This document shows, piece after piece, positions 29,996-35,704 of a stretch of 35,704 nt of DNA. The position numbers were made by a program, and so were the translations under genes. The notes beneath the pieces are model-generated. The model was not told the DNA's origin and made no database searches. It saw only the letters and a list, made by a program, of their open reading frames with translations. Position 1 is the first letter of the stretch, and each line of letters begins with the position of its first letter. Source of the stretch: a bacterium (GTDB lineage: Bacteria > Planctomycetota > UBA1135 > GCA-002686595); contig JAUHXY010000011.1 of NCBI GenBank assembly GCA_030426785.1, positions 1 to 35,704 on the forward strand, given 5' to 3'.

Positions 29996-30865
29996 ATGAA
30001 CGCTATCGACATCCAACAAGCCACCGTGATCGGCGCGGGCACGATGGGTCACGGCATTGCGCAAGTGCTCGCGATGACCGGCATCACCACCCGCCTGTAC
30101 GACGTTGCGGAAGACGCCGTGCAACGCGGGCTTTCCGCCATTCAGGGCAACCTCGACAAGGGTGTCGCCCGCGGCAAGGTCAGCGAAACCGTGCGAGACG
30201 CCGCCATGGCGGCTTTGTCGGGGTCCACCGACCTGCAGGAAGCGGCGGCCGGTTCCCAAATCGTGATCGAAGCGGTGCCCGAGCGCATGGACCTCAAGCA
30301 AAACCTGTTTCGCACCGTGGGGGAACAGCTCGGCCCCAAAGCGCTCTACGCCAGCAACACCTCGTCCCTGTCCTTGACGCAGATCGCTGAAGCCAGCCCG
30401 CACCCCGAGCGGGTGGTGGGTATGCACTTCTTCAATCCGGTGCACATCATGAAGCTGGTCGAGGTTGTGCGCGCCGAGCAGACCGCGCCCGACGCGGCCC
30501 AGTGCGCTCTCGACTTGGCACGGCGCATGGGCAAAGAGCCCATCGACGTGCGCGACGCGCCGGGTTTTGCTTCGTCCCGTTTGGGTATCGCGATCGGCAT
30601 GGAGGCCATCCGCATGGTCGAAGAAAACGTCGCCAGCGCGGCGGACATCGACCAAGCCATGGTGCTGGGGTACGGCTTTCCGATGGGGCCGCTCAAGCTA
30701 ACGGACTTGGTGGGGCTTGACGTGCGCCTATCCATCGCGGAATACCTCGAAAAGACTCTGGGCCCGCGCTTCGCTCCGCCGCAATTGTTGCGGGACAAAG
30801 TGGCTCGTGGCGAGCTGGGTCGCAAGTCCGGGCAAGGCTTCTACGCGTGGGAGAACGGTGGCTGA
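29996..30865 (+). CDS. 3-hydroxyacyl-CoA dehydrogenase family protein
   Basis: 289 aa. ATVIGAGTMGHGIAQVLAMTG, SNTSSLSLTQIAEASPHPERVVGMHFFNPVHIMKLVEVV, GFASSRLGIAIGMEAIRMVEENVAS. Confidence 0.95.
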   Translation: MNAIDIQQATVIGAGTMGHGIAQVLAMTGITTRLYDVAEDAVQRGLSAIQGNLDKGVARGKVSETVRDAAMAALSGSTDLQEAAAGSQIVIEAVPERMDLKQNLFRTVGEQLGPKALYASNTSSLSLTQIAEASPHPERVVGMHFFNPVHIMKLVEVVRAEQTAPDAAQCALDLARRMGKEPIDVRDAPGFASSRLGIAIGMEAIRMVEENVASAADIDQAMVLGYGFPMGPLKLTDLVGLDVRLSIAEYLEKTLGPRFAPPQLLRDKVARGELGRKSGQGFYAWENGG

Positions 30866-31826: not shown

Positions 31827-34310
31827 CTAGTCTTCGCCCCAATGCACGAAGGCCGCCCAGTCCCGGGATGGGTGTCCTTCCGCACGCAGGGCGAGCCTGG
31901 TGCGGCGCACCGCTTCCGAAGGCATCAGGCCGGCGCAAATGTGGGCGTGAAAGCGTTCGCCAAAAGCGCGCGCCCCTTCGTCGGAAACCGGCCACAGGGT
32001 CGCGACCACGTTGCGGGTTCCACCCGCCAAGAAGGCGTGCACGAGCCCCAAAGAGCCTTCTCCGTCGAGATACCGTCCTGTACCCGACGCGCAGGCACCC
32101 AGGTACACCAAGGGCAAGCGCGGTTGCCAAGCTGCGATGGTCGACGCACACAAGGTTTGATCGTCGGCCAGGACCAGCGCTTGCGCCTGCAGGGTGGGAT
32201 CCTCGCAGCCAGGCGCTACCACCAAGTGCGTCGCTAAGTGCAGCGGTCGATTGGAAGCGCAAGCGAACTCGACCGCGCTCGCGATGCAGTGCGGGCCGAC
32301 CTCCAAACTCGATTCGGGTTGCTCTGCGTGCAGTGCTGTGAGTTCTGCCCGGGCGGCCGGCAAGAGGGGCCAGGCTTGCGTCGTGGGCGCTCCGATCCAA
32401 AACCAAGGTCGCGCCAAGGCTCCGGGATCCAAGGCAGCTGGCTCGCGACCCAACGCTTTGCGCTGCACCAGGCGCACGCGCGTTTCGAGGGGTTCCCCAT
32501 GCCAAGCTAGACCGCCCAAAGCGATCTCCTCGAGCGGGCCGTGCATCATCACGTGCAGCGCGGCACGCTCCGGCAGCGGGCGAGCGGGCGGCAATCCCGC
32601 GGCGATCGCTGGGGGGAAGAGGGTTTGGGCTAGTTCGTGCTGCAAGGCTTGCGCGCGCTCCTGATCCCCGTCCTGCAAAGCCTGGCGAGTACGCTGCCAA
32701 GCGGTCTGCACTTGACCGCGCGTGATGGGGAGGCGCGCGAATTCTTGCCATCCGTCGGGGCCGAAGTGCAGCACGAGCGAGAACTCCGGGCCGAAAGCGA
32801 ACGTCATCCAGCCCAAGCCGTCCGCGCGCAGGGCGGCGATGCGCTGGGAGATCTCGTCGCGAGAAGCGCCGCCCCAGGAGCGCGCATAGCGGGTTTCGAT
32901 GCTGAGAGCGGCTTGCTCCAGCTGACCGCACTGGGCCAGCGCGTACGCTTCGAGCACCACCGCATGCCAACCAAGCCATTCACCCCACACGCTGCCGCTG
33001 CCGAGCCGCCGGGTTTGCCAAGCCTCCGCGGCTTGTCCCGCCGCTTGCAAGGGGGCCAGGGCGGCCTGGGCCTGCCCCAGTTGCAAACGCAGTTCGCCTT
33101 CTAGGATCCAGGCCTGCACGCGGCCTTGCGGCGACCAATGCAAGTCGCTCGAAGCGCTGAGCAATCCCTCCAAGGCATGGCGATGCCGGCCTTCGGCGGC
33201 GAGCTGCTGTGCCTCGGCCAGCGCCAACCGTTCGACTTCTTCGGGGGCTTCTTCCTGGAGCCGTTCGAGCGCTCGGCGCGCGGCCGGTAGATGTCCGCGA
33301 CGCCGCAGGGCGGCGGCCAACAAACCTTGCCATGCGATGCGCTCTTCCGGGCTGTCCGGTTGGCAGCGCCACAAGTGATCCAAGGCGGCTTGGACGCGAT
33401 CTTGGTGCAACAAAGCCAAAGCTTGCTCGTGGGCGAGGTCCCACGAGGTTTCCGGCGAGCTCCAGCTCGCCCAGCGTTCGAGCAAGCGTTGCAGGCGATG
33501 CACATCGCCGGATTCGCGCGCGAGGGCCACGCGCCCACGCAGGGCGCGCGCTCGATAGGTAGGTTGTTCGACCGCGACGGCCAGCTCTTCCAGGGCCGCG
33601 TAGCGGGCCGCCGCCGCCGAACGCGTGCCCGTCAAGCGCTCGCATTCGGCCAGGATCCACAGGGGTTCCAGTTGGGGCGTGCGAAGACCCGCGCGGTCGA
33701 AGTCGGCGAGAGCCGCCCGCGCGTGCTCTTGCACGGTCTGCGTGAGGTCCGCGCGCACCATCGGCGCCAAACCGGCATCGCGATCCAAGCGGGCCAGATC
33801 GAGTCGGGCCAGCAACGCGTGGGCTTGCGCGCGGGGCGTTGGGTCGCCATTCGGCTGGATGGCGGCGAGCACCGCGTGCAGTTCCGTTCGAATCGATTCT
33901 CGCTCCGTCGGCCAATCCTCGGGGGGCGCGTCCCCTTGCCAAGTGGCGGCGTAGGCGTCTTGCACGCGGGCGCGCAGGCCTAGGACGAGCTGTTCTTGTT
34001 CCCAACCACGCCGACGGGCTTCGGGACTGAGGGCTGCCGTGAAGCGTGCGATGATCAGCGCATCGGGTCGGCCTAAGTCGCTCAAGACTTGCGCGGCGGC
34101 GAGTAGCTCCGCCGGTTCCGACTGCACGCCCGAGCGGAAGGCTTGCCAAGCCTCTCCGAAGCGTCGACGCGCCGCCGCCCGTTCGGTGGCCGCGTCCTGG
34201 GGCGTGGTGGTGGTGGGGATCGTCGGGGTCCCGGGATCGAGGCGCAGGCCCGGAGCGCCCCAAACCACGCCCCCGCCCAAGGCAGCGAGGAGGCCAAGCC
34301 GAAGCAGCAT
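31827..34310 (-). CDS. TPR-like/CHAT domain-containing protein with predicted signal peptide
   Basis: 827 aa. N-terminal MLLRLGLLAALGGGVVWGAPG, Ala/Leu-rich helical repeats, C-terminal CHAT with His (RPLHLATHLVV) and Cys (LVYLGACASGTGRYLDGEGSLGLVHAFLAGGTRNVVATLWPVSD). Confidence 0.88.
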   Translation of the reverse strand: MLLRLGLLAALGGGVVWGAPGLRLDPGTPTIPTTTTPQDAATERAAARRRFGEAWQAFRSGVQSEPAELLAAAQVLSDLGRPDALIIARFTAALSPEARRRGWEQEQLVLGLRARVQDAYAATWQGDAPPEDWPTERESIRTELHAVLAAIQPNGDPTPRAQAHALLARLDLARLDRDAGLAPMVRADLTQTVQEHARAALADFDRAGLRTPQLEPLWILAECERLTGTRSAAAARYAALEELAVAVEQPTYRARALRGRVALARESGDVHRLQRLLERWASWSSPETSWDLAHEQALALLHQDRVQAALDHLWRCQPDSPEERIAWQGLLAAALRRRGHLPAARRALERLQEEAPEEVERLALAEAQQLAAEGRHRHALEGLLSASSDLHWSPQGRVQAWILEGELRLQLGQAQAALAPLQAAGQAAEAWQTRRLGSGSVWGEWLGWHAVVLEAYALAQCGQLEQAALSIETRYARSWGGASRDEISQRIAALRADGLGWMTFAFGPEFSLVLHFGPDGWQEFARLPITRGQVQTAWQRTRQALQDGDQERAQALQHELAQTLFPPAIAAGLPPARPLPERAALHVMMHGPLEEIALGGLAWHGEPLETRVRLVQRKALGREPAALDPGALARPWFWIGAPTTQAWPLLPAARAELTALHAEQPESSLEVGPHCIASAVEFACASNRPLHLATHLVVAPGCEDPTLQAQALVLADDQTLCASTIAAWQPRLPLVYLGACASGTGRYLDGEGSLGLVHAFLAGGTRNVVATLWPVSDEGARAFGERFHAHICAGLMPSEAVRRTRLALRAEGHPSRDWAAFVHWGED

Positions 34311-34313
34311 GGA

Positions 34314-35423
34314 CTAGCGTTGTTGCAAGGCGTTCAAAAACTCATCCCGCTCTGCACTGGCGGGCAGTTGCTGAGCTTCCCAACGCGCATCGGCATGCCA
34401 ACCGTTGGCGTACAGGTAGCGCACGCGCGCCACACCCCGCAAGGAGTCGAGGTGTTCCAAGGTGGCGGGGGAGGGGCGCACTTCAAACTCGCTGGCGGGA
34501 AGCGGAACTTCGAGCCCATCGCGCAAAGCGGCGAACTCGGCGGTGTAGTGACCGGGCGGCAAAGGAGCCGGCGGCGTCCAGCGAGGTTTGGTTTGCGTCC
34601 ACTGGCCGACCCGCTCACCTTGGTCGAAAGCGCTGCCGTCGTGGGCGTAGAGGCGCAGCAGGTAGGCATGAGCCCCCTCGACCTCCGCGGTTTCCAAGAC
34701 GCCGCTCCAGTGACCTTGGGGTGAACGCGCCAGGACGCGTCCGCGCGGCGTACTCGGCGAGCCGGCGGTGCCGCTGCGCAGGGTGGCGACTTCCGGCCAA
34801 GGACCGTTGGCGCTCACTTGGGTTCCCTCGCGGGCCGCAAGGAACCAAACCAGCGCAACTGCCGCCGCGCTCGCGACCCAAGCGCGCCAGGGGGTCGGTC
34901 CGCGCAGGACTGGAGCGAGTGGGGCAGCGCCTTCCGGTTCGCTGGGCTCGACCTTTTCAGGCCGCTCCATCGCCTCCTGCAGGAACGCTGGCATGTCCCA
35001 ATCGGCTTCCGACAGGAGCAAAGGCGATGGTGGGGGGGTGGTTAGGCTCTGGACCTCCGCTTCGCACGAAGGACAGATGGCGATGTGCGCGCGCAGCTCT
35101 TCACGCTGGGCTTCGTCGAACTCTTCCGCGGCTTGCGGGCCCGCGAGCGCGAACAGCGCTTCCGGCTCGGGGCAGCCTTGCGCGGCGAGCAACGATTCGT
35201 GCAGCCAAGCTTCCACGCGTTGCAGGTGCTGAAGGGCCGGACCCGCTTGCGGATCCTGGGCCATCCGCTCCCGGTCGCGGTCGTTCCATTCGTCCCAGTA
35301 AGCCAAGCGTTCTTGGTGCGTCTTGTGGTGCAGAGGGTGAGTCCGAGAGCCCGACGATGTATCCGCAGGGGTGGCGGGCAGGGGGGCACCTTTCGGGTCG
35401 AATTTTTCGGGATCCTGGGGCAT
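34314..35423 (-). CDS. zinc-finger anti-sigma factor-like membrane protein
   Basis: 369 aa. HIAICPSC (HxxxCxxC), one TM (WVASAAAVALVWFLAAR), lies directly after the sigma gene. Confidence 0.78.
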   Translation of the reverse strand: MPQDPEKFDPKGAPLPATPADTSSGSRTHPLHHKTHQERLAYWDEWNDRDRERMAQDPQAGPALQHLQRVEAWLHESLLAAQGCPEPEALFALAGPQAAEEFDEAQREELRAHIAICPSCEAEVQSLTTPPPSPLLLSEADWDMPAFLQEAMERPEKVEPSEPEGAAPLAPVLRGPTPWRAWVASAAAVALVWFLAAREGTQVSANGPWPEVATLRSGTAGSPSTPRGRVLARSPQGHWSGVLETAEVEGAHAYLLRLYAHDGSAFDQGERVGQWTQTKPRWTPPAPLPPGHYTAEFAALRDGLEVPLPASEFEVRPSPATLEHLDSLRGVARVRYLYANGWHADARWEAQQLPASAERDEFLNALQQR

Positions 35424-35426
35424 GGC

Positions 35427-35704
35427 CTAGACCTCCTCCAAAGCGTAGTTCTGCACCAGCACCTTGCGCAGGCTCACCGTGGCGCGCCGCAAGCGGTACT
35501 TGGTCTGTTCCAAAGAAATCGAGAGCTCTCCCGCGATGCCGCCGAGGGTCTTGCCCTGCACGTAGCGCATGTCGAGCAGGCTCTGCGCTTCGGGTTCTAA
35601 GGAGCCCATGGCAGCGCGTACGTATCCACCGATCTCATCGTTGCCCGCCAGTTCTTGGGGGCCGGGAGTCTCGTCGATCTGTTCGGGGACCTCCTCGGTG
35701 GGAC
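35427..35704 (-). CDS. RNA polymerase sigma factor (ECF/sigma-70 region 4), 5' end beyond window
   Basis: Frame stays open through 35704 (PTEEVPEQIDETPGPQELAGNDEIGGYVRAAMGSLEPEAQSLLDMRYVQGKTLGGIAGELSISLEQTKYRLRRATVSLRKVLVQNYALEEV), so the 35609 ATG in the ORF track is probably internal. Region 4 helix-turn-helix. Confidence 0.85.
   Translation of the reverse strand, partial: PTEEVPEQIDETPGPQELAGNDEIGGYVRAAMGSLEPEAQSLLDMRYVQGKTLGGIAGELSISLEQTKYRLRRATVSLRKVLVQNYALEEV

What the first reader, a model, noticed from the sequence alone, without database searches (positions are those of the whole stretch)
31827..35704. ECF sigma / zinc-finger anti-sigma / secreted TPR-CHAT protease-like cluster
Seen: three tightly packed minus-strand genes, with 3-nt gaps between adjacent CDSs. 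The CHAT protein keeps the caspase-like His (LHLATHLV) and Cys (YLGACASGTG), yet begins with a plausible signal peptide. The anti-sigma has one TM, so its C-terminal half would be extracytoplasmic. Known: CHAT is a caspase-like peptidase clade, and anti-sigma factors can be regulated by proteolysis. Inference: the CHAT protein could act on the anti-sigma ectodomain or be an envelope-stress effector controlled by the sigma factor.
Basis: partly seen in the sequence, partly recalled or inferred. Interest (0 to 1): 0.7.

Follow-up and report, generated by a model that had tools for sequence, protein, structure and literature searches.

The report
Stress-switch operon with secreted caspase-like protein
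In one family of uncultured Planctomycetota, a gene switch (an ECF sigma factor), its membrane-bound inhibitor and an exported caspase-like protein are inherited together as one operon, which suggests that the exported protein works on the inhibitor from outside the membrane, although no cleavage has been shown.

Summary
The three genes are real and placed as described; sigma is cut by the contig end. (1) The CHAT N-terminus is hydrophobic in nearly all orthologs. (2) The order sigma, anti-sigma, CHAT holds in 35 of 35 loci long enough to show it. Anti-sigma occurs in 62 and CHAT in 60 of 81 genomes of the family, CHAT never without anti-sigma. (3) His695 and Cys740 are invariant in 33 of 33 orthologs.

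An ECF-type promoter precedes sigma in 17 of 30 loci. An invariant Arg in a short, poorly modelled stretch just outside the membrane of the anti-sigma is a candidate cleavage site. A fourth, small exported protein with a conserved C-terminal tail occurs in 57 of 81 genomes, only where the operon is, but not in the window's genus. By fold, the CHAT protein's best solved match is Myxococcus DdvA, an anti-sigma factor that carries a CHAT domain in the same chain.

Verdict: a split, dyad-intact relative of the DdvA arrangement. One signalling module is well supported; proteolysis of the anti-sigma is plausible but unproven.

The parts
35427..35704 (-). ECF sigma factor, C-terminal 91 aa (region 4) only; 5' part lies off the contig
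   Evidence: Sigma70_r4 8e-9; same-genus ortholog L067 has regions 2 and 4; alignment A3
34314..35423 (-). membrane-bound anti-sigma factor, 369 aa
   Evidence: HxxxCxxC, one TM, conserved ectodomain in 31 orthologs; AF2 model
35064..35087 (-). zinc-binding motif HIAICPSC, residues 113-120 (cytoplasmic side)
   Evidence: at least 90% conserved in A2; position; lost in a few orthologs, e.g. L055, L154
34824..34889 (-). predicted transmembrane helix, residues 179-200
   Evidence: AF2 helix 179-200, hydrophobic sequence
34773..34796 (-). juxtamembrane motif PEVATLRS, residues 210-217; P210 and R216 invariant, 217 only G or S: candidate cleavage site LR/(G,S)
   Evidence: 31 of 31; residues 209-211 and 213-218 have pLDDT < 50; cleavage is inference
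34473..34742 (-). FN3-like beta-sandwich ectodomain, residues 228-317
   Evidence: AF2 pLDDT mostly above 90; Foldseek matches to FN3/Ig-like domains
34323..34469 (-). C-terminal helices of the ectodomain, residues 319-367, most conserved part of the protein
31827..34310 (-). exported TPR-CHAT protein, 827 aa
   Evidence: PF12770 4e-33; AF2 pLDDT 87, pTM 0.83
34251..34310 (-). hydrophobic N-terminus, residues 1-20 (signal peptide or anchor)
   Evidence: N-terminal segments exceed 95th percentile of internal windows in 92% of 37 orthologs
32831..34205 (-). helical solenoid (TPR-like), about residues 36-493
   Evidence: AF2 helices 37-495; profile matches solved TPR proteins
31836..32642 (-). 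CHAT peptidase domain, residues 557-825
32226..32228 (-). catalytic-type His695
   Evidence: 33 of 33 orthologs
32091..32093 (-). catalytic-type Cys740
   Evidence: 33 of 33 orthologs

Best explanation
The genes form one envelope-signalling module. The anti-sigma holds the ECF sigma factor in the cytoplasm through its N-terminal domain and reaches outside the membrane with an FN3-like domain and a helical tail. The TPR-CHAT protein is exported, meets that ectodomain, and, when its solenoid senses a cue, cuts the anti-sigma just outside the membrane, most likely at the invariant Arg of the PxxxxLR(G/S) motif. Further proteolysis would then free sigma, which switches on its own operon. In most relatives a small exported fourth protein, through its conserved C-terminal tail, probably serves as ligand, inhibitor or second substrate of the CHAT protein. 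Shown: gene order, co-occurrence, conserved dyad, hydrophobic N-terminus, promoter motif, conserved juxtamembrane motif. Inferred: export itself, physical contact, proteolysis, cleavage site, role of the fourth protein.
For: All 35 loci with enough sequence keep sigma, anti-sigma, CHAT in order on one strand, with small gaps. In 81 family genomes anti-sigma is found in 62 and CHAT in 60, CHAT never alone (Fisher p about 1e-16, not corrected for relatedness); the two exceptions have the anti-sigma near a contig end. His/Cys invariant 33/33 at about 35% identity. Hydrophobic N-termini. Invariant P210 and R216 in a low-confidence juxtamembrane stretch. Promoter TTG[AC]A[AT]-N16-[GC]TA 38-95 nt before sigma in 17 of 30 loci, 0.035 expected by shuffling; 17 of 20 sites in 0.92 Mb of strand-bases. 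The best solved fold match is the transmembrane anti-sigma factor DdvA, whose chain is named a CHAT domain-containing protein and keeps the His and Cys in the profile alignment: anti-sigma and CHAT joined in one chain. Diverged versions: adjacent anti-sigma and CHAT in another family of the order (L152; sigma not found), and CHAT-sigma-anti-sigma in Acidobacteriota (L105, L107).
Against: No cleavage or binding was tested, and a complex could not be modelled with the tools. The promoter motif was derived from the same sequences; it is missing in 13 of 30 loci, including the window's genus (L067), and whole-genome counts do not exceed the reversed-pattern control. The invariant Arg could be structural. 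Foldseek similarity to DdvA is global but loose (TM 0.45-0.47, rmsd 10.7). The fourth protein is missing from the window's genus, so it cannot be essential. CHAT could be an effector of the regulon.
Confidence: 0.5

Rival explanations
1. Non-proteolytic sensor: the exported TPR-CHAT protein is a detached sensory ectodomain of the anti-sigma, as in DdvA where both are one chain, and changes anti-sigma shape or oligomerisation without cutting it.
For: DdvA is the best fold match and carries the CHAT in the anti-sigma chain; the anti-sigma C-terminal helices are its most conserved region, as a docking surface would be.
Against: His695 and Cys740 are invariant in 33 of 33, which a pure scaffold does not need. 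DdvA keeps both residues too, so this does not separate the two readings fully.
Confidence: 0.25
2. Effector: sigma controls the CHAT protein (and the fourth protein) as envelope-stress effectors; the anti-sigma is released by another site-1 protease.
For: CHAT sits last in the operon, downstream of a conserved ECF-type promoter; the fourth gene is a possible substrate or partner.
Against: CHAT is never found without this particular anti-sigma; an effector would be expected to be swapped or lost at times. DdvA joins CHAT to the anti-sigma, not to an effector.
Confidence: 0.2
3. Cytoplasmic, Craspase-like defence module in which the N-terminal hydrophobic stretch is not a targeting signal.
For: TPR-CHAT, sigma inhibitor and ECF sigma also form the Csx29/Csx30/CASP-sigma set (PMC10028731); Csx29 is among the top fold matches.
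Against: Hydrophobic N-termini throughout; the anti-sigma has a TM and a conserved ectodomain; the window proteins scanned give no defence hits apart from a weak, short BovA match to the CHAT protein itself; the operon sits beside fatty-acid oxidation genes in many relatives.
Confidence: 0.05

Closest known systems
DdvS/DdvA of Myxococcus xanthus (ECF sigma and dimeric transmembrane anti-sigma; PDB 8rot, 8rw5; Bernal-Bernal et al. 2018 and 2024, cited in PMC12288465)
   Same: ECF sigma with a transmembrane anti-sigma coupled to a helical-solenoid-plus-CHAT protein; best solved fold match to our CHAT protein; His and Cys aligned in the DdvA chain.
   Different: DdvA is one 991-residue chain; here anti-sigma and exported TPR-CHAT are separate and the anti-sigma has its own FN3-like domain. 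DdvS controls a CBASS-CRISPR island; no such genes lie in this window. The two DdvA primary papers are not held and were not read.
Craspase accessory set: Csx29 (TPR-CHAT), Csx30, CASP-sigma (PMC10028731)
   Same: A TPR-CHAT protease, a sigma inhibitor and an ECF sigma; cleavage of the inhibitor is proposed to relieve inhibition of sigma.
   Different: RNA-activated through Cas7-11; here the CHAT protein has an export-type N-terminus and the inhibitor is membrane-bound.
ECF54 sigma factors with CHAT, subtilase and carboxypeptidase neighbours (PMC8999054)
   Same: ECF sigma genes with a conserved CHAT-encoding neighbour; proteolytic control proposed.
   Different: Proposed to act without an anti-sigma, in Actinobacteria; here an anti-sigma is always present.
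E. coli sigma-E/RseA/DegS (from general knowledge; summarised in PMC10028731)
   Same: Site-1 cleavage of a single-TM anti-sigma on its outer side frees an ECF sigma.
   Different: DegS is a PDZ serine protease activated by OMP C-termini; here a clan-CD-type cysteine dyad with a TPR-like solenoid.

Membership tests
CHAT domain (PF12770) | Pfam gathering score with His and Cys dyad | tested here: met
   115.5 bits against 24; dyad 33/33
ECF sigma with ZAS-type anti-sigma | sigma regions 2 and 4 only, adjacent anti-sigma with HxxxCxxC | tested here: met
   in the window itself only region 4 remains; a few orthologs lack the Cys residues
DdvA-type CHAT anti-sigma | anti-sigma domain, TM and CHAT in one polypeptide | tested here: not met
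   separate genes in every locus
DdvA-type CHAT anti-sigma | helical solenoid plus CHAT fold similar to 8rot/8rw5 | tested here: met
   best Foldseek match, E 2.8e-13, TM 0.47; CHAT profile E 6e-11
Craspase (type III-E CRISPR) | Cas7-11/gRAMP and Csx30 in the locus | tested here: not met
   Pfam scans of the main window ORFs show no cas genes; PADLOC gave nothing on the scanned neighbours and only a weak BovA match on the CHAT protein; not searched in the rest of the incomplete genome
ECF54 | no anti-sigma factor in context | tested here: not met
   anti-sigma adjacent in 38 of 38 loci with flank
ECF54 | assignment by the ECF classification models | not testable with these tools
   ECF group models not available; Casas-Pastor 2021 not held
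Active clan-CD cysteine peptidase | demonstrated cleavage dependent on His and Cys | not testable with these tools
   needs an assay
Sec-exported protein | signal peptide by a trained predictor or localisation | tested here: inconclusive
   hydropathy only; some orthologs look like anchors rather than cleaved signals

The most novel reading that the evidence does not exclude
A caspase-like (CHAT) protein works outside the inner membrane as the site-1 protease of an ECF sigma pathway, cutting the anti-sigma after an invariant Arg next to the membrane, and is tuned by a dedicated small exported protein whose conserved C-terminal tail docks on the TPR solenoid. DdvA would be the fused form of the same switch.
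Probability: 0.25. Interest if true: 0.8.

Novelty: new variant of a known kind. Interest (0 to 1): 0.58.

Why it matters
Substrates of bacterial CHAT proteins are mostly unknown. Here the candidate substrate, a candidate site, the promoter and a likely fourth partner follow from conservation alone, so the idea can be tested with a few point mutants. If true, it would link eukaryotic-type caspase/separase chemistry to envelope stress signalling and would suggest that Craspase reuses an older CHAT/sigma-inhibitor logic.

Tried and rejected
Scan of GTDB contigs with the single protein found no relatives; with alignment A1 it found 41 loci, mostly Planctomycetota. The phylum-wide anti-sigma search failed on the server and was replaced by family and order searches. 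No 16S in the incomplete genome, so taxonomy rests on record titles of relatives. No PDB hit with the single CHAT sequence; the whole-protein profile hit only TPR proteins and other helical repeats. No sequence similarity between CHAT and anti-sigma profiles. A wider sigma regulon was sought by the promoter pattern in ten genomes: counts do not exceed the reversed control; a conserved hit before a MAKRRDNMLEAF... gene in three genomes of one genus was not pursued. The promoter was not found before the fourth gene. Defence-island reading rejected for this window. The second CHAT protein of the genome (G000:C306, L002) is not a member of this family.

Full report
Observation. The window is one whole contig of a 366-contig genome, so sigma is cut after region 4. 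CHAT (PF12770, 4e-33), sigma region 4 (8e-9) and a sub-threshold zinc finger are found by Pfam.

Relatives. Full-length orthologs of the CHAT protein (29-47% identity) occur across many genera of the window's family. Relatives with named records are mostly uncultured Planctomycetota. I fetched about 40 neighbourhoods. All 35 with enough sequence carry sigma, anti-sigma and CHAT in that order on one strand; all 38 with upstream flank carry the anti-sigma next to CHAT. Among 81 family genomes, 62 have the anti-sigma and 60 the CHAT protein, CHAT never without anti-sigma; the two genomes with anti-sigma alone have it near a contig end. Over the whole order (154 genomes), outside the family the anti-sigma gives only one partial hit, and that locus again has an anti-sigma followed by a TPR-CHAT gene (L152). 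No sigma was recognised there.

CHAT protein. His695 and Cys740 are invariant in 33 orthologs. The stretch before the conserved part is hydrophobic in nearly all: 92% of 37 exceed the 95th percentile of internal windows, and many end in A-x-A-like sites. This is hydropathy, not SignalP. AF2 gives a helical solenoid followed by a caspase-like domain, pLDDT 87, pTM 0.83. The best solved match is DdvA of Myxococcus (8rw5, 8rot), then Csx29 of Craspase, then separase. The CHAT-domain profile finds DdvA by sequence too (E 6e-11), with His and Cys aligned. DdvA is a transmembrane anti-sigma factor whose chain includes the CHAT domain, and its sigma DdvS controls a CBASS-CRISPR island. The joined form is a strong hint that the two separate proteins here work together.

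Anti-sigma. Thirty-one orthologs share HxxxCxxC (in most), one TM, and an ectodomain, modelled as an FN3-like sandwich plus C-terminal helices with high confidence. The C-terminal helices are the most conserved region. Just outside the membrane, P210 and R216 are invariant (31/31) and residue 217 is G or S only, in a stretch with pLDDT below 50. Two further, more diverged copies keep the Arg (L153, L154). Clan CD peptidases include several that cut after Arg (general knowledge), so I propose LR/(G,S) as the site; this is inference.

Promoter. Upstream of sigma, TTG[AC]A[AT]-N16-[GC]TA[TCG] lies 38-95 nt from the start in 17 of 30 loci, against 0.035 expected; 17 of the 20 sites found in 0.92 Mb of strand-bases are these. 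The motif was derived from this set. It resembles ECF promoters (general knowledge) and suggests autoregulation. It is absent in 13 loci, including the window's genus, and no wider regulon stands out.

Fourth protein. A roughly 190-aa protein with a hydrophobic N-terminus, variable body and conserved tail (HVPVxxPx7PPxxExxxLPPV) is encoded downstream of CHAT on the same strand in 28 of the fetched loci. It is found in 57 of 81 genomes, all with the operon (Fisher p about 3e-14), usually within 3 kb of CHAT but 6-15 kb away in a few. It is absent from the window's genus. The three members tested have no Pfam match.

Wider spread. Acidobacteriota loci L105 and L107 carry a TPR-CHAT gene with a hydrophobic or lipoprotein-like N-terminus, then sigma, then a single-TM protein with HxxxCxxC. 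The arrangement is therefore not confined to this family.

Judgement. One module: about 0.9. CHAT acts on the anti-sigma in some way: about 0.7. By cutting it: about 0.5. At R216: about 0.3. Known relatives are DdvA (fused), Craspase (cytoplasmic) and ECF54 contexts (no anti-sigma). This is a new variant: split, with an export-type N-terminus, an intact dyad and an extra partner. I cannot exclude that the genome-wide ECF survey (Casas-Pastor 2021, not held) lists this context.

Noticed in passing
L034:9483-10058 (+) and 27 other loci; alignment A4: Small exported-type protein with a conserved C-terminal tail, downstream of CHAT; phyletically locked to the operon but absent from the window's genus.
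   Followed up: partly
L034, L035, L036, L041, L044, L054, L063, L067 upstream of sigma: Divergent thiolase, 3-hydroxyacyl-CoA dehydrogenase, acyl-CoA dehydrogenase and MeaB genes next to the operon in many relatives (Pfam checked on L067); the window has a related dehydrogenase at 29996-30865 downstream of CHAT.
   Followed up: partly
L105:2949-6867, L107:3033-6902: Acidobacteriota loci with CHAT, sigma and single-TM anti-sigma in a different order; anti-sigma juxtamembrane stretches also hold an Arg (TALRGQA, VAVRNQA).
   Followed up: partly
L106:15-7781: Rubrivivax locus with two TPR-rich genes (the first with a CHAT domain) flanking a sigma gene; no signal peptide evident on the first.
   Followed up: no
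L132, L141, L123: Promoter-like TTGAAAGCCC(C/T)(G)TTTCCCGGGCGTAG 51-54 nt before a MAKRRDNMLEAF... gene, conserved in three genomes of one genus.
   Followed up: no
G000:C306:2763-3575 (L002): Second CHAT protein of the genome with a C-terminal TM helix; not of this family.
   Followed up: partly
L055, L154 (genus g39): Anti-sigma orthologs that have lost the zinc-binding Cys residues.
   Followed up: no
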